A stretch of DNA of 64,000 bases, taken from positions 1 through 64,000 of IMG/VR virus record IMGVR_UViG_3300020171_000022. One strand, 5' to 3'. The first letter of the stretch is position 1. Every line of letters begins with the position of its first letter. Position numbers and translations under genes: made by a program. A model generated the notes under the pieces. That model was not told the DNA's origin and searched no databases. It saw nothing but the letters and a program-made list of their open reading frames with translations. Source of the DNA: a virus. Positions 3,805 to 30,773 of this stretch are shown here, in pieces.

Positions 3805-5738
3805 TGGCAGAATTTAAACCAGCCCAAAGTAGCGATGATTGTTATTTAAATGGCAGTCTCATCGACTTAACCAGCAATGATCTTCTTTTTGGAGATATTG
3901 ATGGAGTAAGTCAAGACGCTGGGGTTAGGTTTACCAATGTAACTATTCCACAAGGAGCAACAATACTAGGAGCATACGTTACATTTCAGGCATATACTTC
4001 TTTAAGCGTCGATACATGTATTGTTTTTATAGAAGGAGAAGATGTTGATAATGCAGCAACTTTTTTTACTCAGCCCGATTTTGTAGGTAGGGTGAGAACA
4101 ACCGCCTCTGCAAATGAGGTTATGGGGGCCTGGTCTGCTGATGTTGATTATAATTCTCCGAGTGTCATATCTATTATTCAGGAAATTGTCGATAGAGTTG
4201 GTTGGGTAAGTGGAAATAATTTAGTCTTATTTTTTACAAACTATTTTTCAGGCACTGGTGCCTACAGAGATTTCAAATCTTATGATGTCTCTACAACTTT
4301 ATGTGCTAGATTAACTGTAACCTGGAGTTCTCCGAGCCCAAGTGCATCACCAAGCATATCGCCAAGCAGTTCTCCCAGCCTAAGCCCCAGTGCATCTTTA
4401 AGTCCCAGTGAATCTCCGTCTTTAAGTCCCAGTGCATCTTTAAGTCCTTCGGCAAGTATATCTCCATCTGAATCTCCGTCATTATCTCCATCAGCTTCAG
4501 AAAGTCCAAGCGAATCACCATCTTTATCCCCTTCTGCATCGTTAAGCCCCTCTGAAAGTCCTTCGGAGAGTCCTTCCTTGAGCCCCAGTGCGTCATTATC
4601 GCCAAGTAAGTCTCCTAGCGTATCACCATCATTAAGTCCTTCTTTAAGTCCAAGTGTGAGTCCAAGCAAATCCCCCAGCGCATCACCCTCTTTGAGTCCA
4701 AGTGCCTCTATAAGCCCTAGTGTTTCACCAAGTAGGAGTCCGAGTATATCGCCAAGTGCTTCTCCTTCTCTCAGTCCCAGTGCCTCCGTAAGTCCAAGTA
4801 AATCGCCATCAGCAAGTCCCAGTATATCGCCTAGTAGAAGTCCGAGCGTTTCTCCAAGTATTAGTCCTTCCGAGAGCCCCAGTGCATCGCCGAGTCGTAG
4901 TCCCAGCGTTTCCCCAAGCGCAAGTCCATCTTTAAGTCCAAGTGCTTCAATTTCTCCCAGCAGAAGCCCAAGTATTTCACCAAGTCCGAGTCCTTCTGTC
5001 AGCCCAAGCAAATCTCCGAGCAGAAGCCCAAGTGTTTCACCATCTATAAGTCCTTCTCCGAGCCCTAGTAAATCTCCGAGTGCCAGTCCCAGTAAGTCTC
5101 CTAGTGCCTCTCCATCTGCCAGTTGGAGTAGAAGTCCGTCCAGAAGTCCAAGTGTTTCACCAAGTCCAAGCCCCAGCCCATTGCCATCAATAGTTGTAAG
5201 TCCTTCATTGAGTCCAAGTATGTCACCATCCGTCTCGCCAAGCGCCAGTCCCAGTATAGAACCTGCGGAGACACATAAAGGCATTGCAATGAATTTATTC
5301 AATCAGGCCATATCAACTTATAGCAATTTTAATTTCAATTCCATTGCCTGTTTTAATGGAACATATTTCGGAGCAACAGATACTGGAATATATCCATTAG
5401 GCGGAGATACGGATAATGGAAGCGATATAGATTCAAAGATTAAAACAGGGTCTATGGATTTTGGAGATACGTTGATTAAATATATCAGGGATGTGTGGAT
5501 TACACATAGAGCAGACGGGTATCTTAAACTTAAAATATTCGTGGATGAGGATACGACAACTACGGTTGAGAAACAGACCAGTATTGTCAGTGATGAAGTT
5601 AGAGAGGAAAGAATTAAACCCCCCCGTGGATTAAAGGGTAGATTTTATACGGTAGAACTTCAGAATATCGGAGGTGCAGACTTTGATATTGATAGTTTGA
5701 ATCTGCTTGTGGAATCAATTCAAAGGAAGATTCGTTAG
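3804..5738 (+). CDS. Tail protein with jelly-roll-like N-terminus, Ser-Pro linker and propeller-like C-terminus
   Basis: Residues 1-175 resemble a small beta-sandwich common in surface proteins (TIPQGATILGAYVTF). Residues 176-484 are SPSx repeats with more charged x residues (E, K, R) than the first gene. Residues 485-644 resemble the end of phage propeller tail proteins (YFGATDTGIYPLGGDTD, then a tryptophan- and charge-rich sandwich). The start overlaps the previous stop. The repeat looks like an insertion between two folded modules, so it probably acts as an extended spacer. Role inferred. Confidence 0.65.
   Translation: MAEFKPAQSSDDCYLNGSLIDLTSNDLLFGDIDGVSQDAGVRFTNVTIPQGATILGAYVTFQAYTSLSVDTCIVFIEGEDVDNAATFFTQPDFVGRVRTTASANEVMGAWSADVDYNSPSVISIIQEIVDRVGWVSGNNLVLFFTNYFSGTGAYRDFKSYDVSTTLCARLTVTWSSPSPSASPSISPSSSPSLSPSASLSPSESPSLSPSASLSPSASISPSESPSLSPSASESPSESPSLSPSASLSPSESPSESPSLSPSASLSPSKSPSVSPSLSPSLSPSVSPSKSPSASPSLSPSASISPSVSPSRSPSISPSASPSLSPSASVSPSKSPSASPSISPSRSPSVSPSISPSESPSASPSRSPSVSPSASPSLSPSASISPSRSPSISPSPSPSVSPSKSPSRSPSVSPSISPSPSPSKSPSASPSKSPSASPSASWSRSPSRSPSVSPSPSPSPLPSIVVSPSLSPSMSPSVSPSASPSIEPAETHKGIAMNLFNQAISTYSNFNFNSIACFNGTYFGATDTGIYPLGGDTDNGSDIDSKIKTGSMDFGDTLIKYIRDVWITHRADGYLKLKIFVDEDTTTTVEKQTSIVSDEVREERIKPPRGLKGRFYTVELQNIGGADFDIDSLNLLVESIQRKIR
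4329..5256 (+). repeat. SPSx coding repeat tract with charged x residues
   Basis: Same SPSx unit as in the first gene, including the LSPSASx register shift, but with K, R and E frequent at the variable position, especially in the second half. The variable position therefore differs in charge between the two proteins. Confidence 0.85.
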
Positions 5739-13371: not shown

Positions 13372-14484
13372 TCAGGGGCTTCTTGGGACAAGTCCCAGGC
13401 TCTGTAGTCCCAGAGCTAAAATATTTAAGGAGGCATTATAATCTCGATGCAGACGAACATTACAAGTAGGGCATTGATGCCAACGGACAGACAAGTCTTT
13501 TTTGACTATAGTTCCGCATTGGCTACAAGTCTGACTTGTGCCTCTTGGGTTAATTGCTATAAACTGTCGAGCAGCTTCTTCCGCTTTCTGCGACAATATA
13601 TTAGCAAATTGACTCCAGGCCACATCCGAAATAGATTTAGCCAGAAAACCGTTTTGCAACATATTCTTGGTGTTAAGTTTTTCAATACAGATAATGCCAA
13701 ATTTATTGACAATCTTTCTGGTTTCTTGGTGAATGAAATTATGTCGCCTATTAGAGATTCTCTCGTGGATACGAACAACAACTTTTTTAACCTTAGCTCT
13801 TTCAGAAGTGTTTTTAATTTGTTTAGACAATCTCCTTTGAGCCTTTGCAAGAGCCTTTTGGTCTGTCTTAAAAAAGCGAGGGTTCTTAATCTTCTCTTTA
13901 GTGGAAAAGGTGGCAAAATTCTCAAGTCCGACATCTATACCAACTGCTTTGGTAGTTTCAGACAATGGCTTAGGCTCATATTGAATAGAAAAACAGACAT
14001 ACCATTTTCCCGCTTGTTTTCTAATAATGCAAGTTTTAAGAGTTCCAAAAATAGGCCGATGTATTTTGATTTTAACAGAACCTATTTTAGAAAGTTTAAG
14101 ACAATTAGTTTCTATATTCCAACCAAAGTCTGGCTGTTTATAGGTGAAACTGTTATAACGGTCAAAATTTTTAAATCTTGGATACCCAGGGGTTTGTCCT
14201 TGTTTCACTCTACGAAAGAAATTTTGAAAGGCTTTGTCTATTCTGTCAGCCACATTTTGGAGGCTTTGCGAATAGACCTTGTTAAGAGAGGGTCTCTCTT
14301 TTTTCAAAGCAACAATAGATTTGCTTTGCTGAAAGTATCCTATGCTTTTCTTATCTTTTTCCCAGGAGTTCTTGCGTTCCTCCAGAAAATGATTATAGAG
14401 CCAGCGACACTCATCAAGAGTTTCTTGAAGAAGTCTTTGCTGTTTCTTGGTAGGATACAATCTATATTTAAGAGATTTATTCAT
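13372..14484 (-). CDS. tnpB: TnpB RNA-guided nuclease-like protein
   Basis: 370 residues, the usual TnpB size. The RuvC-like residues are in place: Asp in GIDVGLEN, Glu in IEKLN, Asp in HRDYNAS; a four-Cys zinc site (CSQCG and CPTC) lies between the last two. Such proteins are RNA-guided DNA endonucleases that use an RNA from the 3' end of their own gene. No transposase partner is present, so mobility would need TnpA in trans. The ATG lies 7 bases after a strong -10, predicting an almost leaderless mRNA. The catalytic residues are intact, so it may be active. Confidence 0.88.
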   Translation of the reverse strand: MNKSLKYRLYPTKKQQRLLQETLDECRWLYNHFLEERKNSWEKDKKSIGYFQQSKSIVALKKERPSLNKVYSQSLQNVADRIDKAFQNFFRRVKQGQTPGYPRFKNFDRYNSFTYKQPDFGWNIETNCLKLSKIGSVKIKIHRPIFGTLKTCIIRKQAGKWYVCFSIQYEPKPLSETTKAVGIDVGLENFATFSTKEKIKNPRFFKTDQKALAKAQRRLSKQIKNTSERAKVKKVVVRIHERISNRRHNFIHQETRKIVNKFGIICIEKLNTKNMLQNGFLAKSISDVAWSQFANILSQKAEEAARQFIAINPRGTSQTCSQCGTIVKKDLSVRWHQCPTCNVRLHRDYNASLNILALGLQSLGLVPRSP

Positions 14485-16039: not shown

Positions 16040-16067
16040 TGACATTCCGCTTATTGCACTGTTAGCC
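16040..16067 (-). repeat. LA10, terminal attC half-site
   Basis: Minus strand GGCTAAC followed by AGTGCAATAAGC. The 5' core matches the start of its cassette (GTTAGCC) exactly. No second arm or GTT core follows before the terminator. The right array ends with nearly the same half-site. Confidence 0.55.
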
Positions 16068-16247
16068 CTTTATTAATGAACGATAATCTTTTAATTTTTC
16101 CCTAAATCTTTGCTTCATCATATATGCATCGTAATCATAATTCCAATGATCATATTTCCGAGCCATATAGGATTCGGCAATATCTAACAACTGGGCTAAC
16201 AAGTCATTCGAGCGGACGTTTGATAGTCCACTATTTTCTTTGGTCAT
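16062..16247 (-). CDS. Cassette protein with attC-encoded leader
   Basis: 61 residues. The first 16 (MTKENSGLSNVRSNDLL) are encoded inside site LA9 and are shared with two unrelated cassette proteins; the cassette itself has no early start codon. The rest is helical, with an aromatic and charged segment (ARKYDHWNYDYDAYMMKQRF). GGAAGAGG lies 5 bases before the ATG inside the site. The stop TAA lies in the 5' core of LA10. No known domain. Confidence 0.65.
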   Translation of the reverse strand: MTKENSGLSNVRSNDLLAQLLDIAESYMARKYDHWNYDYDAYMMKQRFREKLKDYRSLIKG

Positions 16248-16279
16248 AAATGCCTCTTCCGCTCAATTCTGCGTTATGT
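16194..16279 (-). repeat. LA9, 86-bp attC-type site carrying RBS, ATG and leader
   Basis: Minus strand: ACATAAC core, GAGCGGAAGAGG arm, ATG at 16247-16245, GTCCGCTC arm, GTTAGCC core. It carries the same 16-codon leader as LA5 and LA8. Against LA5 the leader codons differ at three bases, all synonymous. Confidence 0.85.
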
Positions 16280-16459
16280 TGATTCTAATTTACTACCACA
16301 CTCAGGACAAAAATTAACATTTACTATTGATGCAGAATTTTCTTTGTCTGGATATCCTGGTAAATATTTCTGCCAAATGGGTTGAGGATTTATTAATTCA
16401 CACCAACATAACAATTCATTCGAGCGGACGTTTGATAGTCCACTATTTTCTTTGGTCAT
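16274..16459 (-). CDS. Cassette zinc-finger protein with attC-encoded leader
   Basis: 61 residues. After the shared leader from site LA8 (ending NELL) comes CWCELINPQPIWQKYL and a C-terminal FCPECGSKL, a pattern of very small phage zinc proteins. The first Cys codon is the third codon after the recombination point, so a start inside the preceding attC is needed for a complete zinc site. The stop codon TAA is part of the 5' core of LA9. Role unknown. Confidence 0.7.
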   Translation of the reverse strand: MTKENSGLSNVRSNELLCWCELINPQPIWQKYLPGYPDKENSASIVNVNFCPECGSKLEST

Positions 16460-16491
16460 AAATGCCTCTTCCGCTCAATTCTGCGTTATAT
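16406..16491 (-). repeat. LA8, 86-bp attC-type site carrying RBS, ATG and leader
   Basis: Minus strand ATATAAC core to GTTATGT core, with the same internal ATG and leader as LA9 (one conservative change, Asp to Glu). The cassette that follows starts GTTATGTTG and ends CAACATAAC, a perfect 9-base reverse complement. Confidence 0.85.
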
Positions 16492-16494
16492 GGA

Positions 16495-16692
16495 TTAAAT
16501 TCTAAATGTAGGTTGATCTTTCCCTTCTCTCCAGAAAATGAATCGTTGCCACCAAAATTCTTTGGAAGCATAATTATATTCACACACAGGGCAAGTATAA
16601 AGATTTGGAGCATCTGAATTGCACCGAGGACAAAAACCAAACACAAGTCTTATCTTGCCCAAAATTCTATTCCTATTTGTTTGCAGTGACAT
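16495..16692 (-). CDS. Cassette zinc-ribbon protein
   Basis: 65 residues from the ATG at 16692, which is preceded by GGAGG at 9 bases; an in-frame ATG at 16716 lies in the attC core and is possible. FCPRCNSD and CPVCEYNY form a rubredoxin-like zinc knuckle pair, followed by an aromatic helix (FWWQRFIFWREG). Such proteins are common in mobile DNA and may bind nucleic acid or protein partners. Function unknown. Confidence 0.65.
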   Translation of the reverse strand: MSLQTNRNRILGKIRLVFGFCPRCNSDAPNLYTCPVCEYNYASKEFWWQRFIFWREGKDQPTFRI

Positions 16693-16706
16693 AAAAGGAA
16701 GCCTCC

Positions 16707-16762
16707 GTATAATCATTTATTCCAGCCGATGCTAAAAAGCACGGCTGACCTCTACGTTATAC
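16707..16762 (-). repeat. LA7, 56-bp attC-type site
   Basis: Minus strand GTATAAC core, GTAGAGGTCAGCC arm, GGCTGGAAT arm, ATTATAC core. The G of the expected GTT is A here (ATTATAC), so this site may recombine poorly or not at all. Confidence 0.75.
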
Positions 16763-17299
16763 CTCAAAATAATGAATCTCATTACCCCATTGTTCCCAAC
16801 CTTCACGTTGCTCTCTACTGAATACATCCATCTTCACGGCTTCAGGATACCAAAGGCTTATCATCTTATACGCAATGTCAGGCTTCCTGCTGTGCTGTCT
16901 TGCCGGTTCTCTTATCACTGTCATAAACTTACCCCTTGTCTCAGTGCTCACTGGCTGAAATTTTGGTTTGTAGAACCATGTTAAGTATTCATGAGCATAC
17001 CGAACAGAGAAGGCGGGAGCTACACCGTTGCATTTATCCCATATCAGCCTTGCATGTCTGCGATAGCCTCTCTGCTCCATCGCCAGTTCGCCTATCATCA
17101 AAAACTCGTCAATGCCCCACAGAAAAACAGAATGCGTCTTTGTCGCCATTGGGAAAACTTCCTTGTCTAAAAGCCCGAAAATTGCCATAACATCAAGCGT
17201 GGCGTAATCAAGGTTTTTCCCTTGCCGTGGCCTTGCACTTCTCAGACCCCCCTTCTTTTTAGGCCAAGGGGGATCAATAACGAAAATATTAAATGACAT
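16757..17299 (-). CDS. Cassette MT-A70-type adenine methyltransferase
   Basis: 180 residues. DPPW near residue 9 is the catalytic motif of MT-A70 family N6-adenine methyltransferases; SVFLWGIDEFL and ARLIWDKCNGVAP match later conserved strands. The Walker-like SAM site is not separately visible. The ATG is formed by the 3' core of LA6 and the stop TAA by the 5' core of LA7, so the gene fills the whole cassette. Likely modifies phage DNA to resist host restriction (inference). The right array carries a second, divergent MT-A70 gene. Confidence 0.8.
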   Translation of the reverse strand: MSFNIFVIDPPWPKKKGGLRSARPRQGKNLDYATLDVMAIFGLLDKEVFPMATKTHSVFLWGIDEFLMIGELAMEQRGYRRHARLIWDKCNGVAPAFSVRYAHEYLTWFYKPKFQPVSTETRGKFMTVIREPARQHSRKPDIAYKMISLWYPEAVKMDVFSREQREGWEQWGNEIHYFEV

Positions 17300-17355
17300 A
17301 ACCAGCCAATCAACCCGACCGGGAATAGTCCTGGCGGGTTATCCGCACGTTATTT
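17296..17355 (-). repeat. LA6, 60-bp attC-type site
   Basis: Minus strand AAATAAC core, GTGCGGATAACCCG arm, CGGGTTGATTGG arm, GTTATGT core. The arms resemble RA6 of the right array rather than its left-array neighbours. The GTTATG core supplies the ATG of the downstream methyltransferase. Confidence 0.8.
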
Positions 17356-17460
17356 TTCCTCTTCTTCCCCTTCACACTCATGCCCAATTTCGCCTGAAGT
17401 ATCCGCCCCACATTTTAGGCAGACATACCCAGGCCCATTATCGATGAAAAATGAATACAT
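17350..17460 (-). CDS. Tiny zinc-knuckle protein, 36 residues
   Basis: Last gene of a five-gene cassette. VCLKCGAD and a later HEC give a possible C-x2-C...H-x-C zinc site, followed by an acidic tail (EGEEEEK). The TAA stop lies in the 5' core of LA6. GAGGAAAAG precedes the start. Function unknown. Confidence 0.5.
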   Translation of the reverse strand: MYSFFIDNGPGYVCLKCGADTSGEIGHECEGEEEEK

Positions 17461-17465
17461 ATCTA

Positions 17466-17609
17466 TTACTTTTCCTCTTTGTCATCAATTATTCGCCATC
17501 TAAGATGATAGGCAGCTATTTTTTTGATGTCGAACAAATGCCCATTTAATACCTTCAATTCTTTGATTAATGCCTCAATCATTGGCAGAATCTTCTCTAA
17601 GTCAAGCAT
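17466..17609 (-). CDS. Small helical protein, 47 residues
   Basis: Starts behind GAGGTGAGAG. Predicted to be one or two helices (IEALIKELKVLNGHLFDIKKIAAYH) and charged at the end. Part of the five-gene cassette between LA5 and LA6, spaced tightly with its neighbours. No recognisable domain. Confidence 0.5.
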   Translation of the reverse strand: MLDLEKILPMIEALIKELKVLNGHLFDIKKIAAYHLRWRIIDDKEEK

Positions 17610-17620
17610 CTCTCACCTCA

Positions 17621-17806
17621 TCAATCTGGCAATTTGATATTGAAATCTCCCAATGCCTGATTCACTTTCAATAACAATTCTTTTCCATTTTCTATAAATT
17701 TTGCTTGCTCTTCGTTAATCGGGTCCTGACTTATCATCCAAAGCAATTTTGTTCGACAGTCAAGAAGGGCATTAATGAGCTCTTTGATTTCCGTGTTGGT
17801 CAACAT
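17621..17806 (-). CDS. Small helical protein, 61 residues
   Basis: The ATG directly abuts the stop of the upstream gene (TAAATG), indicating coupled translation. The sequence is amphipathic helix throughout (TEIKELINALLDCRTKLLW) and lacks cysteine clusters. It could be a dimerising coiled coil. Function unknown. Confidence 0.55.
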   Translation of the reverse strand: MLTNTEIKELINALLDCRTKLLWMISQDPINEEQAKFIENGKELLLKVNQALGDFNIKLPD

Positions 17807-17986
17807 TTATCTCCCCACCTCCCCCCTGTAAAGATCCTTCCAGTTATCCCTTGACTCCTTTAGGTTGGCAACCTCTGCCTCCAACTCCTTGATAATTGTC
17901 TCATCCCAATCATGCTTGGCAAGCAACTCCTTGATACGTTGAGTAAGTTGTTTTACATATTCATAATTTTTAGGCTTAGGTCTCAT
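17807..17986 (-). CDS. Small coiled-coil protein, 59 residues
   Basis: Start supported by GGGGGAAGAG. A basic N-terminus (MRPKPKNYEYVK) precedes a heptad-like helix (TIIKELEAEVANLKESRDNW) and ends DLYRGE. Translationally coupled to the next gene. Probably oligomeric; role unknown. Confidence 0.55.
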   Translation of the reverse strand: MRPKPKNYEYVKQLTQRIKELLAKHDWDETIIKELEAEVANLKESRDNWKDLYRGEVGR

Positions 17987-18004
17987 CTCTTCCCCCTTTA
18001 TGTT

Positions 18005-18214
18005 CTAAATAGGAGTAGTCTCGTTATTGTTCACATTCTTTCGCCCCCTGAATCGCAATTCAAGGGCATTAGGCGTATTTCTGTATGCATCACACCTGTC
18101 CATGCGAATATGATCTTTTAGTCCAATCAAATCAAAATCTTTCTCACCGCAAAAGGGGCAACATAACAAGTCATTAGAGCGGACGTTTGATAGCCCGCTA
18201 TTTTCTTTGGTCAT
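18005..18214 (-). CDS. Cassette Lar-like zinc protein with attC-encoded leader
   Basis: 69 residues. The shared leader from site LA5 runs directly into CCPFCGEKDFDLIG and a later DRCDAYRN, the pattern of Lar-type small zinc proteins (CPFCG). In Lar of Rac prophage the family alleviates type I restriction, but most members are untested. The first Cys follows the recombination point by two codons, so the leader start in attC is needed. GGAGG lies 5 bases before the ATG. Confidence 0.7.
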   Translation of the reverse strand: MTKENSGLSNVRSNDLLCCPFCGEKDFDLIGLKDHIRMDRCDAYRNTPNALELRFRGRKNVNNNETTPI

Positions 18215-18246
18215 TCATACCTCCGCCGCTCAATTTTACGTTGGGC
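18161..18246 (-). repeat. LA5, 86-bp attC-type site carrying RBS, ATG and leader
   Basis: Minus strand GCCCAAC core, GAGCGGCGGAGG arm with Shine-Dalgarno, ATG at 18214-18212, GTCCGCTC arm, GTTATGT core. The leader has the same amino acids as LA9 with synonymous differences. Confidence 0.85.
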
Positions 18247-18459: not shown

Positions 18460-18516
18460 GCCCAACCAGCGGGTCCAGCGGATGGCCAAGAGCCACCCCT
18501 GACCCAGACGTTATGT
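18460..18516 (-). repeat. LA4, 57-bp attC-type site
   Basis: Minus strand ACATAAC core, GTCTGGGTCAGGGG arm, CCGCTGGACCCGCTG arm, GTTGGGC core, a full GTTRRRY match. Confidence 0.8.
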
Positions 18517-18704: not shown

Positions 18705-18839
18705 ACATAACAAGTCAATCCAGCGGACGGTCAATAAGCAGGTATCTCGGCCCAAACATCATCCTGACCTTCTGTTATGCTTTCGCATTGGGCAAGGTGC
18801 TTTCGCCACTATTGGCCGCCGCTGATCTCTACGTTATCT
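18705..18839 (-). repeat. LA3, 135-bp long attC-type site
   Basis: Minus strand AGATAAC core, GTAGAGATCAGCGGCGG arm, GTCCGCTGGATTGACTT arm, GTTATGT core, with about 85 bp between the arms. Sites of this length are known from chromosomal integrons (Vibrio repeat type). Confidence 0.75.
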
Positions 18840-19064
18840 GATAAAAATTGCGAACAATCCCCCAATGGTGCATCCAACCAGAGCAGATCCGCCACCAATG
18901 CATTGCGCAACGATTGCGGAGGTTTCTGTCGTAAGCAATAAATGTGATCCAAGTAATGTAAAAAATGCACCAAAAATAATAATACAAGAACAAAGAAAAA
19001 GAAGAGTATGATTATCCCGACAGATAACAACGGCATCGATCAGACGCCGAATAAAACTTGTCAT
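18834..19064 (-). CDS. Cassette membrane protein, two spans
   Basis: 76 residues with membrane segments at about 19-40 and 51-75, the second rich in Gly (CIGGGSALVGCTIGGLFAIF). A short basic start (MTSFIRRL) suggests the N-terminus stays inside. Small two-span proteins in cassettes can be holin-like, toxins or transport factors; the sequence does not decide. The stop lies in the 5' core of LA3. Confidence 0.6.
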   Translation of the reverse strand: MTSFIRRLIDAVVICRDNHTLLFLCSCIIIFGAFFTLLGSHLLLTTETSAIVAQCIGGGSALVGCTIGGLFAIFIR

Positions 19065-19065
19065 T

Positions 19066-19109
19066 TTTTACCATCCCTTCTCCGGCGCAGATCATGCCGG
19101 ACGTTAGGT
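19066..19109 (-). repeat. LA2, short degenerate attC-type site
   Basis: Minus strand ACCTAAC core followed by TCCGGC...GCCGGA arms; the expected GTT core is replaced by GGTAAAAA. Recognised mainly from its position between cassette genes. Confidence 0.5.
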
Positions 19110-19382
19110 GTCACAAATCAATAATTTGACTTTTGCATCGACAAGTCGCCTTTTTAAAAAGCTTATATCCCGCTCGAAACGCCGGATGATATATTGCCAT
19201 GCATCATGTTTGCTTTGATAAATATCCCCGATGCGAAGACATTTTTTGATGCCATCAAGATAAAGCCATCCAGATTTAGTTGTTTTAAGTATTAAATATG
19301 GTCCCTTGGGTTCTTGGCCCTCAATAATCCAACACCTAACAATCGGCTGCACTTGAGCCTTAACAACTCTTTTAGATTTCAT
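19104..19382 (-). CDS. Cassette protein of unknown function, 92 residues
   Basis: Starts behind AAGGAACC. The product is basic with a likely small beta domain (IIEGQEPKGPYLILKTTKSGWLYLDG) followed by a helix (DISFLKRRLVDAKVKLL). It might bind nucleic acid. First gene of the left array. The stop TAA overlaps the 5' core of LA2. Confidence 0.55.
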   Translation of the reverse strand: MKSKRVVKAQVQPIVRCWIIEGQEPKGPYLILKTTKSGWLYLDGIKKCLRIGDIYQSKHDAWQYIIRRFERDISFLKRRLVDAKVKLLICDT

Positions 19383-19387
19383 GGTTC

Positions 19388-19421
19388 CTCCTTACCGGCC
19401 AAGTGAGCCGGAACGTTATCT
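19388..19421 (-). repeat. LA1, truncated attC-type site at array entrance
   Basis: Minus strand AGATAAC core, GTTCCGGC...GCCGG arms, GTAAGGA in place of the GTT core. It marks the start of the array, 66 bases after the exonuclease gene. Confidence 0.5.
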
Positions 19422-23442: not shown

Positions 23443-24267
23443 ATGAATGAACTTCAAACTCAAATAAACCTTAAACAAAAATTAGATAAGATCGATAAAC
23501 AGGTCTACGGAGAAGTGTTTGAGGGTTTCTGTGGATCAAGGTTGAGAATCTTAATTGCAATGTGGGAGAAGGGGGAGGTGATTATTTCGGATTTTAGGGG
23601 AGGTAAAATCCGAACTTGGAATAAATTATCCATTGAAACTGGTAGGAGTGATAAATCTCTCAAACGCTGGCATGATCTTTATAAGAAATGTCCTGATAAG
23701 GAAAAATATATAAGAATCGCAGAAAAGCAAGCCGAGGAATGGACGGAAAAGGTGTTAAAACTTGGCTGGGAAGCCCTTCTATTGTCCGGTTCAAAGGAAT
23801 GGTATACACCAAAGGAATATATCGATTCGGTTTATGAAGTCCTATCCGAAATAGATTTAGACCCCGCCTCATGTAAAGAAGCTAATCGAACCGTTAAAGC
23901 CAAGAAATTTTATTCAAAAGAAGATGATGCTCTCTCTTGTTCATGGATAGGTAAGATATTTTTAAATCCACCATACGGCAATGACGGCCCTCCTTTTGTT
24001 GAAAAGTTAATTCAAGAAATTAAAGCCGGAAATGTTATCGAAGCTATCTTACTGGTCAATTCCAGGGCCACAGATGCAGAATGGTATCAACCTCTTTATA
24101 ATGGACTTATTTGTTTTACGGATCACCGTATAGATTTTGATTCACCTGATGAAAAAAATACGAGTTCGACTCATGGCAGTTGTTTTATTTATTTTGGGCC
24201 TAATGAAAAAAAATTTGCTGATTCATTTTCAAAACATGGAAGCATTTTAAAGAGATTTAATGGGTAA
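23443..24267 (+). CDS. Phage-type N6-adenine DNA methyltransferase
   Basis: 274 residues. YTPKEYIDSVYEVL, DLDPASCKEANR and FLNPPYG (the NPPY catalytic motif) are the hallmarks of the phage Dam-like family. Residues 1-115 form a separate, basic N-terminal part (SDKSLKRWHDLYKK, KQAEEWTEKVL) that may bind DNA. It starts two bases after the HTH gene. Likely protects phage DNA or adjusts host regulation. Confidence 0.85.
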   Translation: MNELQTQINLKQKLDKIDKQVYGEVFEGFCGSRLRILIAMWEKGEVIISDFRGGKIRTWNKLSIETGRSDKSLKRWHDLYKKCPDKEKYIRIAEKQAEEWTEKVLKLGWEALLLSGSKEWYTPKEYIDSVYEVLSEIDLDPASCKEANRTVKAKKFYSKEDDALSCSWIGKIFLNPPYGNDGPPFVEKLIQEIKAGNVIEAILLVNSRATDAEWYQPLYNGLICFTDHRIDFDSPDEKNTSSTHGSCFIYFGPNEKKFADSFSKHGSILKRFNG

Positions 24268-25195: not shown

Positions 25196-25314
25196 CATCT
25201 ACTTCTAGTGAGTTGCGGCCAATAGGGTGAAAACCAAAATAAGAGATTGCATAAGACAATCCATATGAGTGAAAGGCTCTTCTATTGGCCGTCAACTCCA
25301 GTGATTTGTTATCT
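25196..25314 (+). repeat. RA1, 119-bp long attC-type site
   Basis: Starts CATCTAC, has a strong long stem (AGTTGCGGCCAATAG with CTATTGGCCGTCAACT) around a 45-base AT-rich loop, and ends AGTGATTT-GTTATCT. Its 5' core departs from consensus. It is the first site of the right array. Confidence 0.65.
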
Positions 25315-25427
25315 TGCTTGACTCAATAGGAATGACAAAAAGTGCTAACCCGAATAACACTGACAAATCATTCGGCTGACGGGCAGCAAACCGGAACCGT
25401 AATAGTTTCGGGGTTAAGCAAGATAAC
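25309..25427 (+). other. Cassette without a clear gene
   Basis: The insert between RA1 and RA2 holds only a 15-codon frame (25332-25379, MTKSANPNNTDKSFG). Its ends match over ten bases (GTTATCTTGC and GCAAGATAAC). GCTAACCCGAA near the start can pair with TTTCGGGGTTAAGC near the end, so the insert may encode a folded RNA or be regulatory. Confidence 0.5.
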
Positions 25428-25475
25428 GTAGAGGTCAGCGGCGCTTTGGGTGTCCGCTGGAGTGATTGGTTATGC
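25421..25475 (+). repeat. RA2, 55-bp attC-type site
   Basis: AGATAAC core, GTAGAGGTCAGCGG arm, TCCGCTGGAGTGATTG arm, GTTATGC core. GGAG in the right arm is 9 bases before the ATG contained in the core. Confidence 0.85.
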
Positions 25476-25657
25476 CAGATATAATCCAAGAGATCCACCA
25501 AATCGAAGAAATTGCGTGGCAATGGTTTGCAGAGATATATCCACATGAATGCTATGCCAGTTGGCCTGACCGATTCTGGGACTTCTTCCATATCAAATGT
25601 CCTAATGTGACACGTGAACAGATGGAACGGATACTTTCAGAAACGGATGATGCATAA
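25472..25657 (+). CDS. Cassette protein of unknown function, 61 residues
   Basis: The ATG is the last part of the GTTATGC core of RA2 and the stop TAA is in the GCATAAC core of RA3, so the frame spans the entire cassette. The product is acidic and aromatic (IEEIAWQWFAEIYPHECYASW, FWDFFHIKCP). No known domain. Translation would use the GGAG in the attC arm. Confidence 0.65.
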   Translation: MPDIIQEIHQIEEIAWQWFAEIYPHECYASWPDRFWDFFHIKCPNVTREQMERILSETDDA

Positions 25658-25706
25658 CGTAGAGGTCAGCGGCGCTTTGGGTGTCCGCTGGAGTGATTGG
25701 TTAGGC
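25652..25706 (+). repeat. RA3, 55-bp attC-type site
   Basis: GCATAAC core to GTTAGGC core, with arms identical to RA2 over most of their length. GTTAGGC fits GTTRRRY exactly. Confidence 0.85.
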
Positions 25707-25728
25707 GAAAACCACGAAAGGAGATTAT

Positions 25729-25917
25729 ATGGAAGATAACGAAAAATGTACAGTGCAATGTGACTCAAGGGTTGGTTCAGTATGTATGAAATATGCAAAA
25801 ATGATTATGCGAAATAAAGAATCAAATAAATATGACCATGTTAATTCCACAGAAGTAGGGATAAAAGTCCCGCAATGTTTATTTGCCGATAGTAAACGGC
25901 AAGGACACGTTGCCTAA
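25729..25917 (+). CDS. Cassette Cys-containing protein, 62 residues
   Basis: Starts behind AAGGAGATTAT. Contains KCTVQCDSRVGSVCMKYAKM and a later QCLF, four Cys that could bind metal. Ends GHVA with the stop in the GCCTAAC core of RA4. Cassette ends match exactly (GTTAGGC and GCCTAAC). Function unknown. Confidence 0.6.
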   Translation: MEDNEKCTVQCDSRVGSVCMKYAKMIMRNKESNKYDHVNSTEVGIKVPQCLFADSKRQGHVA

Positions 25918-25968
25918 CGTAGAAATCAGCGGGAGCCTTTGGCAATCCGCTGGATTGACTGGTTAGGT
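25912..25968 (+). repeat. RA4, 57-bp attC-type site
   Basis: GCCTAAC core, GTAGAAATCAGCGGG arm, TCCGCTGGATTGACTG arm, GTTAGGT core. The AGGTGA across the core is placed to act as ribosome binding site for the next gene (ATG at 25974). Confidence 0.85.
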
Positions 25969-25973
25969 GATTT

Positions 25974-26192
25974 ATGACCTTTGAATTATTTAATTGCACC
26001 CAAGTTCTTTTACGAGAGATTGCCATGCCCAAAGTAAGGCAAAAAGATATTTCTGCTACCTATGCTCTTGCGCTGCGGAGTTCCGATCCAACTGATTGGA
26101 AATCTGTAAATGAGGCAATCATAAAAAGATGGAGCCTATCTGGGTTAAAGCGAATTAAAGATATGGCTTGGTCTGGAAAATGTTTCACCTAA
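25974..26192 (+). CDS. Cassette protein of unknown function, 72 residues
   Basis: Start 3 bases after AGGTGA in the RA4 core. A short N-terminal part precedes VRQKDISATYALALRSSDPTDWKSV, and helical sequence with basic residues follows. No domain recognised. The stop TAA is in the ACCTAAC core of RA5; cassette ends match exactly. Confidence 0.6.
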   Translation: MTFELFNCTQVLLREIAMPKVRQKDISATYALALRSSDPTDWKSVNEAIIKRWSLSGLKRIKDMAWSGKCFT

Positions 26193-26241
26193 CGCAAAGG
26201 TCAGCGGCGTGTCGCACGTCCGCTGGAGTGACTTGTTATAT
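26187..26241 (+). repeat. RA5, 55-bp attC-type site
   Basis: ACCTAAC core, GCAAAGGTCAGCGG arm, TCCGCTGGAGTGACTT arm, GTTATAT core. Confidence 0.85.
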
Positions 26242-26266
26242 TTTTTATTAAAGTGAGGGAAGAAAA

Positions 26267-26413
26267 ATGAAATGCACCGATTGCGGCAAAGAACTTTCCA
26301 AGGAACAAGAAAAACATAATGAAGAAATAGCAGTAAAATCAGGAACAAAGAAATTAGATATGTGTGGTAATTGTTGGGCAGATTATTGCCGGCACGCTGA
26401 AACGGGTCAATGA
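26267..26413 (+). CDS. Cassette zinc-ribbon protein, 48 residues
   Basis: KCTDCGKEL and MCGNCWADYC give two Cys pairs of a small zinc ribbon around a charged helix. Preceded by GAGGGAAG. The stop is just before the ATATAAC core of RA6; ends match exactly (GTTATAT and ATATAAC). Similar small zinc proteins recur in both arrays. Function unknown. Confidence 0.65.
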   Translation: MKCTDCGKELSKEQEKHNEEIAVKSGTKKLDMCGNCWADYCRHAETGQ

Positions 26414-26470
26414 ATATAACGTGCGGATAACCCGCCGCTATTGGCGGTCGGGTTGATTGACTGGTTATAC
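26414..26470 (+). repeat. RA6, 57-bp attC-type site
   Basis: ATATAAC core, GTGCGGATAACCCGCCG arm, CGGGTTGATTGACTG arm, GTTATAC core. Its arms are of a different subtype, shared with LA6 of the left array. Confidence 0.85.
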
Positions 26471-26479
26471 GGAGGTCTT

Positions 26480-26632
26480 ATGTCTTTATTTTCTGATGAA
26501 GAGATTTGTATCGGTTGTAAATATGCCATGTTTCACGATTGTTGCCATAAATTTTGTTTTTGTGATGAAAACCATGAAAGTGATAGAGACCATGTTTGTG
26601 GCAAGTGCCCATATAAAATTAATTCCACATAA
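26480..26632 (+). CDS. Cassette Cys-rich protein, 50 residues
   Basis: Starts behind GGAGG. Eight Cys and several His (ICIGCKYAMFHDCCHKFCFC, then CGKCPY) indicate a multi-metal or iron-sulphur-type small protein. A longer frame on the same strand covers this region but is a shadow. The ends of this cassette match only partly (GTTATAC and ACATAAC). Function unknown. Confidence 0.65.
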   Translation: MSLFSDEEICIGCKYAMFHDCCHKFCFCDENHESDRDHVCGKCPYKINST

Positions 26633-26681
26633 CGTAGAGATCAGCGGTGCTTTAAGCATCCGCTGGAGTGATTGGTTATCT
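26627..26681 (+). repeat. RA7, 55-bp attC-type site
   Basis: ACATAAC core, GTAGAGATCAGCGG arm, TCCGCTGGAGTGATTG arm, GTTATCT core. Confidence 0.85.
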
Positions 26682-26702
26682 GATCTTTATACGGGAGGAT
26701 AT

Positions 26703-26873
26703 ATGACTGATAAAGAAAAATTGGTGGGGATACGACAAGCATTGAAAGACATAATAGCCTATCCTAAAGAAGGGGGTTATCCTTCCGAGGTAGTTTACGA
26801 TAAGTTTGCGTATAAACGTATCGTGAAATCGTATCGTGATGGGCTTAAACAAGTTCTTCGTGACTACAGATAA
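26703..26873 (+). CDS. Small cassette protein, 56 residues
   Basis: The ATG at 26703 follows GGGAGGATAT. Basic helical protein (DKEKLVGIRQALKDII, YKRIVKSYRDGLKQVL). The stop is in the AGATAAC core of RA8, and cassette ends match exactly. No domain recognised. Confidence 0.6.
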   Translation: MTDKEKLVGIRQALKDIIAYPKEGGYPSEVVYDKFAYKRIVKSYRDGLKQVLRDYR

Positions 26874-26954
26874 CGATGAAGATAAGCGGGCGGGCACAAA
26901 TGATGAATGAAAATAAAAGGGCTATTTCCGCTCCGCTTGATCGCCTTGTTATAC
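26868..26954 (+). repeat. RA8, 87-bp attC-type site containing a start codon
   Basis: AGATAAC core, AAGCGGGCGGG arm, ATGs at 26900 and 26903, CCGCTCCGCTTGATCGCC arm, GTTATAC core. Length and internal ATG resemble LA5, LA8 and LA9, and the frame runs through the core into the methyltransferase cassette. Confidence 0.75.
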
Positions 26955-27496
26955 CTCATGGGGGTTTCCGGTGTATCGTGGCCGATCCGCCGTGGCATTA
27001 TGGCGTATGGGGCGGGGGTAGCGGAAGAGGATCGCGAGGTCTTGTTTTGGATGGGAAAAGTGTTCCGATGCCTTATCCAACTATGACAATTGATGAAATC
27101 GCCGCACTCCCCGTTGATAGATGCGCCGCAAATAATTGCGACCTGTATCTATGGACAACGCAGAAATACTTGCCAGATGGTTTCAGGATTATGCAAATAT
27201 GGGGCTTCCGGTATTGTCAAACCTTGACTTGGTGTAAGATTCCGCGAGGACTTGGGCAAGGCGGATTGTTCTGTCCGACAACAGAATTTATACTATTGGG
27301 GCGCAAAGGAACAATGCCACAGGGTAAGCGGCGTATTGATTCGACATGGTGGCAAGTCAAACGCCCGCATAACTCGCACAGCACAAAGCCTGAATTTTTT
27401 CAAGATTTGATTGAACAGGTGAGCAATGAGCCACGGCTGGAATTGTTTGCCCGCCGTTTTCGTTTAGGATGGACGGTATGGGGTAATGAGGTATAA
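26900..27496 (+). CDS. Cassette MT-A70-type adenine methyltransferase, starts inside attC
   Basis: 198 residues from the ATG at 26900 inside RA8 (26903 is also possible). DPPWHYG is the catalytic motif; YLWTTQKYLPDGFRI, LTWCKIPRGLGQGG and the final LFARRFRLGWTVWGNEV are typical of MT-A70 phage proteins. The first 18 residues are encoded by the attC site. The stop is in the GTATAAC core of RA9, and ends match over ten bases. Likely DNA adenine methylation against restriction. Confidence 0.85.
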   Translation: MMNENKRAISAPLDRLVIPHGGFRCIVADPPWHYGVWGGGSGRGSRGLVLDGKSVPMPYPTMTIDEIAALPVDRCAANNCDLYLWTTQKYLPDGFRIMQIWGFRYCQTLTWCKIPRGLGQGGLFCPTTEFILLGRKGTMPQGKRRIDSTWWQVKRPHNSHSTKPEFFQDLIEQVSNEPRLELFARRFRLGWTVWGNEV

Positions 27497-27546
27497 CGTA
27501 GAGGTCAGCCGCACTTTTGAGTGTCGGCTGGAGTGACTGGTTATAC
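27491..27546 (+). repeat. RA9, 56-bp attC-type site
   Basis: GTATAAC core, GTAGAGGTCAGCCG arm, GTCGGCTGGAGTGACTG arm, GTTATAC core. The arms carry compensating changes (CAGCCG with CGGCTG) relative to the other sites, supporting selection for the folded stem. Confidence 0.85.
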
Positions 27547-27577
27547 GTTTTTTAATTTTATCATGGAGGTTAAAAAC

Positions 27578-27823
27578 ATGGCAACACAATTATCAAGAGA
27601 GAAAGTAGCACAAGCATGGTGCAAGCCTACAACGAGTCATAAAGTGATGGATGTAGAGTTGGCAGAAGCCTTCGCCGAGATTCTTGATGAAATATGGTCT
27701 AAGCCCTGGCTCGGAAATGCCACTACGGACGAATTGCTGACTGAAATCAGAACACGCATTGAGATGGATGGTAAACTTCAATACCGAACTATTGATGTAG
27801 TTTTTACATCTCATTCTGTATAA
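27578..27823 (+). CDS. Small cassette protein, 81 residues
   Basis: Start at 27578, 8 bases after GGAGG; an upstream in-frame ATG overlaps that site. Helical protein with AQAWCKPTTSHKVMDVELAEAFAEIL. The pattern is common among small phage proteins of unknown role. The stop is in the GTATAAC core of RA10 and ends match exactly. Confidence 0.6.
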   Translation: MATQLSREKVAQAWCKPTTSHKVMDVELAEAFAEILDEIWSKPWLGNATTDELLTEIRTRIEMDGKLQYRTIDVVFTSHSV

Positions 27824-27842
27824 CAGTGTAATAAGCTGGCAG
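27818..27842 (+). repeat. RA10, terminal attC half-site
   Basis: GTATAAC followed by AGTGTAATAAGC, nearly identical to LA10 at the end of the left array. No matching second arm is seen in the 230 bases before the next gene, which otherwise show no clear feature. Confidence 0.55.
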
Positions 27843-28071: not shown

Positions 28072-29472
28072 ATGATAATAAAAGCTGATTCTCGACATAT
28101 CCCATTATCTGACCAGTCCGTGAACTGCATTATCACATCTCCACCTTATTGGTCTTTGCGGAAATATGACATTCCCGATTTGATTTGGGATGGGGATGAA
28201 AAATGTGAACATAATTTTGATTTGAAGAGTTTGGAAATCCCTACTGGAACTGGTGGAAATTGGCAACAAGCAAATAACGGTCCTGGATTGGCAATGGGTA
28301 AAGATCAGACTCGCTTTAAAGGTGATTGCAGAGAAGCAAATAAAGTCGACACGGTAAAGATTCAACAAGGGTTCTGTCTTAAATGTAGTGCCTGGCGTGG
28401 TCAACTTGGCCTTGAACCCACCATTGAACTCTACCTGAAACATCTTCTTCAGATTATGGATGAGTGTAAGAGAGTGCTGAGGGATGATGGGACGATGTTT
28501 ATCAACTTAGGCGACTCCTATTATGGTGGTAAGGGCATGAGTTCTCAGGCATGGTCAACAGATCATCAGGATCGCGAAACTCTTCAAAAGTCTCAACATC
28601 AAATTTGTGGAATGGGTGAAGCAAGACCAGCAGATTTACCGCAAGGAAATATTCTTCCTAAATCCCTCTGCCTCATTCCTGAACGGTTCGCTATTGAGAT
28701 GGTCAACCAGGGATGGATACTCAGAAATAAGATAATATGGAAAAAGCCAAATTGTATGCCTTCGTCAGCAAAAGATAGATTTACGGTCGACTGGGAAGGA
28801 ATTTTCTTCTTTGTGAAGAGTAAGAAATATTGGTTTGAGCAACAGTATGAACCTTTTTTGACAGAAAGTAATGCCGAGCGTCCACGAATGGGACAGGGAA
28901 ATCAAACTATTTACAATCAAAAAAGGCGGGGTTTAATAAAAGGCAATGTTCAAATAGGAAGCGAACAGAGACACTCCGCCAATATAAATTACGGCTTAAA
29001 GGGCCGTAACCGTCGCTGTGTCTGGACAATAAGCACGGCCGCTTACTCCGAGGCCCATTTTGCAACCTTCCCAGAAGCCCTTGTCGAACCGATGATTAGG
29101 GCAGGATGTCCTAAATTCGTTTGTAATAAGTGTGGGAAGGCGAGGGAGAAGATTGTTGATGTTGAATATATTAAAAATAGACCGTCGGCGGGCAACGATC
29201 CACGAAGTAGGAATGAGGATAAACTGGCTGGAGGTAGGGGACCAGGTGGATATCGTGGGAATAATCTTCTTAAACAAACTAAAGAAATTGGCCTCACCGA
29301 TTGCGGTTGTAACGCTGGTTTCCGGCCTGGAATAGTCCTTGATCCATTCTGCGGAAGTGGAACAGTCTTAAGGGTAGCTGAGAGGTTAGGCAGGCAGGTT
29401 ATAGGGATTGACTTGGGATATGAGGAATTAGCAGATAAGAGAATATCTTGGAATCAGATGGAGTTAATTTAA
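28072..29472 (+). CDS. DNA methyltransferase with TSPPYW motif
   Basis: 466 residues. ITSPPYWSLRKYD is the catalytic motif and LDPFCGSGTVLRVAERLGRQVIGIDL the SAM-binding part, in the order of beta-class N4-cytosine or N6-adenine methyltransferases. The central part is long and has a C-x2-C pair (CNKCGKAREK), a possible zinc-dependent recognition region. It has no restriction partner in the window, so it is probably an anti-restriction enzyme. Confidence 0.85.
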   Translation: MIIKADSRHIPLSDQSVNCIITSPPYWSLRKYDIPDLIWDGDEKCEHNFDLKSLEIPTGTGGNWQQANNGPGLAMGKDQTRFKGDCREANKVDTVKIQQGFCLKCSAWRGQLGLEPTIELYLKHLLQIMDECKRVLRDDGTMFINLGDSYYGGKGMSSQAWSTDHQDRETLQKSQHQICGMGEARPADLPQGNILPKSLCLIPERFAIEMVNQGWILRNKIIWKKPNCMPSSAKDRFTVDWEGIFFFVKSKKYWFEQQYEPFLTESNAERPRMGQGNQTIYNQKRRGLIKGNVQIGSEQRHSANINYGLKGRNRRCVWTISTAAYSEAHFATFPEALVEPMIRAGCPKFVCNKCGKAREKIVDVEYIKNRPSAGNDPRSRNEDKLAGGRGPGGYRGNNLLKQTKEIGLTDCGCNAGFRPGIVLDPFCGSGTVLRVAERLGRQVIGIDLGYEELADKRISWNQMELI

Positions 29473-29644: not shown

Positions 29645-30001
29645 ATGCCCACCTTTAAATGCTTCTTTTGTGATCAGCCTGCCTCGTTAGTTGCTTTCTA
29701 CAGTAAAGCCTGTGGGTCCCGAATGGGTCGAACGCTAGAAAATCCTGAGTTGGTCTGTGAGACCTGCTACCGATCCCCTCGAATAATTAATCAACTATCC
29801 CCTATGCGTGGTGGGGATGAAGGGATGTTCTCTTTTAAATTTGAAGCTATCGCAAGATGGAGCAAGAAAGAATTGGCTTGGCATCTATCAAAGAAGTTTT
29901 ATGAGATAAACCATTTATCGAGTAAGCATTGGAGACGTATAATATGGAGAATTTTCTATCTTCATCAGAAACCAAAAAAGGTTCCGAATGAAATCACTTA
30001 A
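29645..30001 (+). CDS. Small zinc-finger protein, 118 residues
   Basis: Starts behind GAGGTAAACC. FKCFFCDQPASLV and CETCYRSPR make a zinc site; the C-terminal half is basic and aromatic (HLSSKHWRRIIWRIFYLHQKPKK). The KCFFC start is shared with the gene at 24973. Its end overlaps the following methyltransferase. Function unknown. Confidence 0.6.
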   Translation: MPTFKCFFCDQPASLVAFYSKACGSRMGRTLENPELVCETCYRSPRIINQLSPMRGGDEGMFSFKFEAIARWSKKELAWHLSKKFYEINHLSSKHWRRIIWRIFYLHQKPKKVPNEIT

Positions 30002-30773
30002 AGATTATCTCTTTTATCAAGATTGTTGGGCAACGATCTATTGTGGAGATTGTCTTGAAGTGATGCCGATGCTTGAGGAAAAAATTAATATGATACTCTG
30101 CGATTTACCTTACGGAACTACCGCCTGTTCGTGGGATACCATAATTCCTTTTGAGTCGCTTTGGAAGGAATATAAGCGGCTAATAAAGGATAACGGAGCG
30201 ATTATCCTGACGGCAAGCCAACCATTCACAAGTGCACTGGTGATGAGTAATATCAAGATGTTTAAGTATGAATGGATATGGGAAAAAGACAAAGGGGCAA
30301 ATTTTGCGTTGTGTAAAAAAACACCAATGAAAACGCACGAAAATATATTAGTGTTTGGTGGTGGGAAATACTTCCCTCAAATGAAAGAAAGGCCACCTGA
30401 AAATATTAGGCAAAATAAACCACGAGTGAACAAGTCAAGCCAGACAGGAACGGTGTGGCTTTGTGGAAAAAGCAAAGGTTCTCTTATTATGAAATATCCA
30501 GAAAGCATTTTGAACTTTAATGCTTGCCGTGAATATCTTCACCCCACCCAGAAGCCCGTTGCCCTCTTTGAATACCTTATTCACACCTACACGAATGAAG
30601 GGGATACGGTGATAGATAACTGTTTGGGAAGTGGCACAACCCTTGTAGCATCAACAAACCTCAACCGGAAGTCCATTGGTATAGAGATTAACCCAAAATA
30701 CTGTGAGATAGCAGTTAAGAGATTGCGCCAAGAGGTATTCGACTTTAGGAAATTGCATGAACCAATTCCTTGA
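29988..30773 (+). CDS. N6-adenine DNA methyltransferase, DxPY type
   Basis: 261 residues. MILCDLPYGTTACSWD carries the catalytic motif (DLPY), followed by the usual W-x-TIIPFESLWKEYKRL; NCLGSGTTLVASTNLNRKSIGIEI holds the SAM site. This catalytic-first order marks the beta class. It overlaps genes on both sides, within a replication-linked operon. One of five predicted DNA methyltransferases in the window. Confidence 0.88.
   Translation: MKSLKDYLFYQDCWATIYCGDCLEVMPMLEEKINMILCDLPYGTTACSWDTIIPFESLWKEYKRLIKDNGAIILTASQPFTSALVMSNIKMFKYEWIWEKDKGANFALCKKTPMKTHENILVFGGGKYFPQMKERPPENIRQNKPRVNKSSQTGTVWLCGKSKGSLIMKYPESILNFNACREYLHPTQKPVALFEYLIHTYTNEGDTVIDNCLGSGTTLVASTNLNRKSIGIEINPKYCEIAVKRLRQEVFDFRKLHEPIP

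What the first reader, a model, noticed from the sequence alone, without database searches (positions are those of the whole stretch)
16194..18246. attC sites that encode an RBS, ATG and a 16-residue leader for unrelated cassettes
Sites LA5, LA8 and LA9 contain a Shine-Dalgarno, an ATG and codons for MTKENSGLSNVRSN(D/E)LL, in frame with three different downstream proteins, two of which have zinc Cys right after the junction and no start of their own. LA5 and LA9 leaders differ at three bases, all synonymous, which suggests that the peptide is translated and selected. The site thus acts as recombination site, ribosome binding site and common N-terminus.
Basis: partly seen in the sequence, partly recalled or inferred. 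Interest (0 to 1): 0.95.

Follow-up and report, generated by a model that had tools for sequence, protein, structure and literature searches.

The report
Phage integron sites that start genes
In this phage and at least seven related virus records, some gene-cassette recombination sites (attC) carry a ribosome binding site, a start codon and 13 to 28 codons that run in frame into the next cassette, which usually has no usable start of its own, so the DNA-shuffling site also acts as the start of the protein.

Summary
The three sites are true attC sites: a covariance model trained only on leaderless attCs finds them full length (E 5e-10 to 2e-9). Each holds a Shine-Dalgarno, an ATG and MTKENSGLSNVRSN(D/E)L, in frame with three unrelated downstream ORFs. 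Three more window sites read through the same way, and leader attCs occur in seven further IMG/VR records. Among 12 attCs with SD+ATG in the loop, 10 are open at least 42 codons past the crossover, against 1 of 24 other frames (p=3e-6). ATG-to-crossover length varies (39-84 nt) while phase is kept. In 11 of 15 cases the stop is the TAA of the next R'' box. One leader sequence sits before different cassettes, with identity ending at R'. So the attC supplies translation start and N-terminus to start-less cassettes. Closest precedents are attI1 ORF-11, fused cassettes and engineered protein-coding attCs: a new variant of a known kind. Expression and recombination are untested.

The parts
18161..18246 (-).
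   Evidence: CM R2 hit E 4.6e-10, full length; sequence
18005..18214 (-). ORF MTKENSGLSNVRSNDL|LCCPFCGEKDFD..., start-less zinc-finger-like cassette fused to the attC leader (phase 0)
   Evidence: weak zf match only
16406..16491 (-).
   Evidence: CM R2 hit E 1.9e-9
16274..16459 (-). ORF MTKENSGLSNVRSNEL|LCWCELINPQ...CPECGSKLEST; no Met after the junction; stop TAA lies in the next R''
16194..16279 (-).
   Evidence: CM R2 hit E 1.1e-9
16062..16247 (-). ORF MTKENSGLSNVRSNDL|LAQLLDIAESYMARKYDHW...
19334..19421 (-). Leader attC of a second subtype (AAGGAGGAACC-ATG, MKSKRVVKAQVQPIV|R), phase 1
   Evidence: CM R2 E 5e-6; same subtype in virus L028 before another cassette
19104..19382 (-). ORF MKSKRVVKAQVQPIV|RCWIIEGQEPK..., no start within 30 codons after the junction; stop in next R''
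19025..19106 (-). Leader attC (weak SD), MTSFIRRLIDAVV|ICRDN...; long L''/L' helix; not found by CM R2
   Evidence: arm score 36; no hit in shuffled sequence at threshold 22; DNA fold z -3.3
18834..19064 (-). ORF MTSFIRRLIDAVV|ICRDNHTLLFLCSC...; the homologous cassette in L123 has its own SD and ATG
   Evidence: tblastn 47% identity, E 2e-8
26868..26954 (+). Leader attC of the second array; starts at 26900/26903 (no clear SD), ...MMNENKRAISAPLDRLV|IPHGG
   Evidence: CM R2 E 7.6e-10
26876..27496 (+). MT-A70 methyltransferase ORF whose N-terminus is encoded inside the attC
   Evidence: PF05063 E 4.5e-23
16707..16762 (-). Ordinary leaderless attC; its cassette has its own SD and ATG
17296..17355 (-). 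Ordinary attC; the R' box GTTATG supplies the ATG of the next cassette (MT-A70 ORF 17299..16757)
18460..18516 (-). Ordinary leaderless attC
18705..18839 (-). Long attC with SD-ATG in the loop whose frame stops inside L' (the one closed case in the window)
25421..27546 (+). Second attC array: seven leaderless sites (25421, 25652, 25912, 26187, 26414, 26627, 27491) plus the leader site at 26868
   Evidence: CM R2

Best explanation
In these phage cassette arrays a class of long-looped attC sites ('leader attCs') doubles as a translation start. SD and ATG lie in the attC loop just after L''. The ribosome then reads through L' and R' and, without stopping, into the next cassette, whose ORF begins at the recombination crossover and usually has no usable start of its own. 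The attC thus gives 13-28 N-terminal residues to whatever cassette is joined at R'. Two reading phases exist: TTG^TTA (VRSNDL|L) and G^TT-Rxx ((D/Q)xVV|x). Start-less cassettes sit behind a leader of the matching phase. What is conserved is start signal, open frame and phase, together with the attC fold; the exact peptide is mostly incidental. Shown by sequence: attC anatomy, SD/ATG, frame, lack of other starts, reuse of one leader before different cassettes with identity breaking at R'. Inferred: actual translation, present recombination, and benefit (expression of cassettes without their own start).
For: The leader sites are attCs: CM R2 from 34 leaderless sites (pairs supported by covariation 0.265 against at most 0.084 when slid) finds them end to end (E 1e-12 to 5e-6). 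Frame: of 102 unique CM-found attCs, 12 have SD+ATG in the loop, and 10 are open at least 42 codons past the crossover in that frame, against 1 of 24 other frames, p=2.7e-6; in a curated set 15/16 against 4/30, p=1e-7. ATG-to-crossover lengths of 39, 48, 60, 81 and 84 nt all keep phase 0, and 37, 43 and 49 nt keep phase 1. In 11/15 the leader-frame stop is the TAA of the following R''. In 14/15 there is no SD-preceded start in the first 30 codons after the crossover. MTKEN leaders precede four cassettes in two viruses and MKSKR leaders two cassettes in two viruses: site identity 85-99%, flanks 22-37%. The cassette domain begins at the crossover: Lar (PF14354) in G001b matches from residue 27, above cut-off. 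A homologue of the 19106 cassette has its own SD and ATG elsewhere. The scans that brought in these contigs did not select for leaders.
Against: No transcript, ribosome-profiling or proteome data. The sites are few and partly related, so p-values are optimistic. One window site (18705) has SD-ATG that stops inside the attC, and L086 (bacterial) is open only 15 codons. G005b also has its own SD and ATG 6 codons after the crossover, and in L017/L117 the same leader and cassette share a different 5' half, so there the leader travels with the gene. No tyrosine recombinase in the 66 kb record. The 19106 and L019 sites are not found by CM R2, and the 2740 site of L028 only weakly (E 0.13).
Confidence: 0.78

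Rival explanations
1. The leader peptide itself is a selected functional tag (for example for stability, targeting or solubility) shared by cassette proteins.
For: In five MTKEN-type copies 6 of 8 variable positions are third codon positions (p=0.02) and pN/pS is about 0.25. Among four copies the part from the ATG on varies at 4/51 positions against 11/29 before the ATG (p=0.002).
Against: Only five related copies; two of the three original synonymous changes form one hairpin pair; in the MKSKR subtype changes between ATG and crossover are 6 nonsynonymous, 0 synonymous. Leaders of the same attC backbone have unrelated N-terminal halves and different lengths; VRSNDL is fixed by L'-R' DNA (L054).
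Confidence: 0.12
2. These are relic gene fusions: start-less ORFs once became joined to an upstream start across an attC that no longer recombines, so the site is not a portable start module.
For: No integrase in the record. The MLNRD leader stays with its gene although the 5' half of the site differs.
Against: The attC boxes and arms are intact. One leader precedes several cassettes with the break at R'. CALIN attCs of phages are recombined by IntI1 in the laboratory (PMC9892861).
Confidence: 0.2
3. The leader is only a short ORF that loads ribosomes, which terminate and re-initiate downstream (as attI1 ORF-11, or short ORFs in attC), or the ATG in the loop is chance.
For: Such mechanisms are known for attI1 and proposed for attC (PMC8876359). 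One loop SD-ATG in the window (18705) does stop inside the site.
Against: The frame does not stop: 10/12 run on for at least 42 codons, and 11/15 to the next R''; 14/15 have no SD-preceded downstream start.
Confidence: 0.06

Closest known systems
attI1 ORF-11 / ORF-17 / ORF-18 of class 1 integrons (reviewed in PMC8876359)
   Same: A recombination site carries SD, ATG and a short reading frame at or across the crossover point and helps cassettes poor in translation signals.
   Different: That is attI, one fixed place. ORF-11 stops in the R box, and the cassette is re-initiated at its own start. Here the site is attC, the frame continues as one protein, and the cassettes mostly have no usable start.
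Short ORF in attC with termination-reinitiation (Jacquier et al. 2009, as cited in PMC8876359)
   Same: Translation across an attC that affects the next cassette.
   Different: That ORF ends before the next cassette's start; here it fuses to the next cassette.
Fused gene cassettes (e.g. blaGES-1/aacA4, PMC4670013)
   Same: A downstream gene uses translation signals of an upstream cassette.
   Different: [quoted passage not shown] here the attC is complete and itself holds the start.
Synthetic attCs embedded in protein-coding genes (Nivina et al., as cited in PMC8618304)
   Same: attC folds can be kept while encoding peptide, because structure rather than sequence is constrained.
   Different: Engineered; these are natural and also carry the ribosome binding site and start codon.
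CALINs in phage genomes (Qi et al. 2023, PMC9892861)
   Same: attC arrays without integrase in phages, with methyltransferase cassettes.
   Different: Start codons or leaders in attC were not found in that paper by a term search.

Membership tests
Integron attC site | R''/R' boxes (YAAC...GTTR) and paired L''/L' with conserved spacing | tested here: met
   CM R2, full-length hits for leader sites; covariation of the arms
Integron attC site | Tandem array of cassettes separated by such sites | tested here: met
   Two arrays in the window
Integron attC site | Bottom strand folds into the R/L hairpin | tested here: inconclusive
   MFE shows the R/L stem for 16276, 19106, 26871 and L041, but 18243 and L052 prefer another fold, with mostly modest z-scores
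Integron attC site | Recombination at G^TT by an IntI | not testable with these tools
   Identity between leader copies ends at R', which is consistent only
CALIN | At least two attCs and no integron integrase nearby | tested here: met
   No PF00589 match in the 66,448-base record
attI1 ORF-11-type leader | Located in attI, ends at or near the R box, cassette re-initiates | tested here: not met
   Located in attC; frame continues at least 42 codons
Fused cassette | attC between the two genes partly or wholly lost | tested here: not met
   Complete attC by CM, model positions 1-56
Lar restriction-alleviation protein (some downstream cassettes) | PF14354 above gathering score | tested here: inconclusive
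   Met for L030 (45.1 bits) and G001b (28.9 against 28.6); not met for the window cassettes

The most novel reading that the evidence does not exclude
Leader attCs are portable, phase-coded start modules: integrase-driven shuffling joins start-less cassettes to interchangeable N-termini. Two reading-phase classes act as compatibility groups, so cassette exchange in phages makes new N-terminal protein variants and switches cassettes on or off by frame.
Probability: 0.42. Interest if true: 0.88.

Novelty: new variant of a known kind. Interest (0 to 1): 0.78.

Why it matters
In the textbook integron a cassette brings its own ORF, and the attC is a non-coding hairpin that hinders ribosomes. Here the attC is the start of the protein, so cassettes can do without a start and a recombination event fixes both expression and N-terminus. 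It would be a natural counterpart of engineered coding attCs. It would also be a source of missed or mis-started genes in phage arrays, since annotation may drop ORFs that begin inside attC. And it gives a direct test of whether attC loop sequence, usually treated as free, is under translational selection.

Tried and rejected
(1) The peptide motif MTKENSG as DNA pattern in viruses gave three chance hits in ordinary genes. (2) A MTKEN-specific DNA pattern in 84,980 species genomes gave none. (3) The L''-half pattern in genomes gave a few genuine attCs but no convincing leader. (4) TTGTTATG-CCPFCG hits: L029 and L032-L036 are probably ordinary Lar-like genes that encode Leu-Leu as TTGTTA, because no attC could be shown at the match; not counted. 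L030/L031 look like attC by eye and arm score but are not strong CM hits; not counted in the statistics. (5) L114 (phase 2) and L112, L113, L115, L116, L118-L122 look like normal gene starts without attC. (6) Known phages and plasmids: no close DNA relatives, and no protein relatives of two cassettes in the phage collection. (7) RNA folding of the leaders: no consistent occlusion or exposure of SD. (8) The first consensus structure for the attC model had only 4 pairs and was replaced. (9) A broad search of a bacterial phylum for leader attCs failed on a handle error and was not repeated.
Full report
What the window is. The window lies in a 66,448-base virus record of IMG/VR, with head, connector and terminase genes matching PHROGs. 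It holds two cassette arrays: one on the minus strand from 19,421 down to about 16,060, and one on the plus strand from about 25,250 to 27,830. No tyrosine recombinase was found in the record, so these are clusters of attC without an integrase (CALIN), a class already described in phages (PMC9892861).

Are the sites attC? I aligned 34 short, leaderless sites from the window and related virus contigs. The R''/R' and L''/L' pairing is supported by covariation: score 0.265 against at most 0.084 when partners are slid. A covariance model from these alone finds the three reported sites from end to end at 18161-18246 (E 4.6e-10), 16406-16491 (1.9e-9) and 16194-16279 (1.1e-9), and also 26868-26954 (7.6e-10) and 19334-19421 (5e-6). 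The same sites appear with all filters off. The leader is therefore an enlarged loop in an otherwise ordinary attC.

The leader. In all three reported sites an SD lies just after L'', the ATG is base 30 of the 80-base site, and the frame runs MTKENSGLSNVRSN(D/E)L up to the crossover G^TTA and then into three unrelated ORFs. Three further sites in the window read through in the same way: MKSKRVVKAQVQPIV|RCWII (site 19418), MTSFIRRLIDAVV|ICRDN (site 19106) and MMNENKRAISAPLDRLV|IPHGG, an MT-A70 methyltransferase (site 26871, no clear SD).

Relatives. Leader-neutral DNA scans for attC half-sites in IMG/VR brought in contigs with more leader attCs. L041/L123 has MTKENRGLSNVRSNDL|LDGHSV..., MKRNIHDEVYWTEKQQEAHLLGIRSNDL|LCCPFC... 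and MAQKKKEQKGRLSAVRSNDL|LCESEI.... L039 has MDDPYKRIFNIQVDKDADLSDVRSNEL|LGCPFCG.... L052 has MTDKKDGSLPVRSNDW|LSVFW.... L028 has MKSKRAIPAQVQSVV|SEKDL..., MLNRDEEVERIFLSDL|LDGGF and MPRKIKESVLNDL|LCCPYCG. L019 has MKKQKSIPHRVDAVV|IRFNN. L129 and L127 have MKETKTKKNNGLSNVRSNDL|LSEVDCC. The few attCs of this backbone in bacterial genomes have no convincing leader.

Frame test. Over the fetched viral loci searched plus a set of bacterial ones, the model gives 102 unique attCs, 33 of them with long loops. Twelve have an SD-preceded ATG in the loop. In ten the frame is open at least 42 codons beyond the crossover, against 1 of 24 in the other two frames of the same sites (Fisher p=2.7e-6). The ten include one doubtful case (L040). 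In a curated set of 16 long sites with a loop ATG the figures are 15/16 against 4/30 (p=1e-7). Loop lengths from ATG to crossover differ (39, 48, 60, 81, 84 nt) but keep phase 0; a second group (37, 43, 49 nt) keeps phase 1. In 11 of 15 the stop of the leader frame is the TAA of the next R'' box, so the ORF fills the whole cassette. In 14 of 15 no SD-preceded start follows within 30 codons; the exception is MLNRD...|LDGGF. Sites are partly related, so these p-values overstate the evidence.

Modularity. The four MTKEN sites of the window and L123 are 85-99% identical to one another, yet their 60-base flanks on both sides are at about chance level (22-37%). Identity on the right ends at R', the crossover. 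The two MKSKR sites show the same. A cassette that is start-less behind site 19106 has a homologue in L123 with its own SD and ATG, so both expression modes exist for one cassette family. Where a downstream domain is recognised, it begins at the crossover: Lar in L030 and G001b.

Is the peptide selected? For five MTKEN-type leaders 6 of 8 variable positions are third codon positions (p=0.02), with pN about a quarter of pS. In four of them the part from the ATG on is less variable than the part before it (4/51 against 11/29, p=0.002). But copies are few and related. In the MKSKR subtype the codons between the ATG and the crossover differ only by nonsynonymous changes (6 to 0; one further change, AGG/AGC, lies past the crossover). 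VRSNDL is a translation of conserved L'-R' DNA that is also present in a leaderless attC (L054). I conclude that start signal, openness and phase are kept, and that selection on the sequence of the peptide is unproven.

Mechanism and comparison. Most likely the mRNA of the array is entered by ribosomes at the attC loop, and the protein is made as leader plus cassette. Known precedents are ORF-11 in attI1, which ends in the R box and works by re-initiation; short ORFs proposed in attC; cassettes fused by loss of attC; and engineered attCs that encode protein (PMC8876359, PMC4670013, PMC8618304). I found no report of natural attCs that supply the start codon and an in-frame N-terminus to the next cassette (paper searches; most subscription papers are not covered). 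Hence a new variant of a known kind. Translation and recombination have not been shown.

Noticed in passing
window 17296-17355(-) and 25421-25475(+): At two leaderless attCs the R' box itself reads GTTATG and gives the start codon of the next cassette (MSFNIFVIDPPW, MPDIIQEIHQ); at 25421 the L' GGAG sits at SD distance. A second way in which an attC supplies translation signals.
   Followed up: partly
window 16066-16050(-) and 27820-27836(+): Both arrays end with nearly the same sequence, TAACAGTG[C/T]AATAAGC, an R'' half without a following R'; it may mark an array boundary.
   Followed up: no
window 16757-17299(-) and 26876-27496(+): Each array carries an MT-A70 methyltransferase cassette (PF05063); further DNA methyltransferases lie at 23443-24267, 28072-29472 and 29988-30773, so counter-restriction may be a theme.
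   Followed up: partly
window 120-5738 and 44679-45179: Long runs of Ser-Pro-Ser/Thr type repeats in ORFs of the structural gene region, with a long open frame on the opposite strand (221-2743, 840 aa) that is probably an artefact of the repeat.
   Followed up: no
window 13372-14484(-): A 370-aa ORF that looks like a TnpB-type transposon protein sits between late genes and the array (from the sequence only, no family search).
   Followed up: no
L017/L132 and L117/L135: The MLNRD leader and its cassette are nearly the same as in L028 but behind a different R''-L'' half, so here leader and cassette travel together.
   Followed up: partly
L133, about 320 bases downstream of the leader attC: An ORF ...GDGQVQPVVQRLSSGW continues a phase-1-like leader tail (CAAGTGCAGCCGGTTGTT) although R' reads GTTC; perhaps a decayed leader attC.
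   Followed up: no
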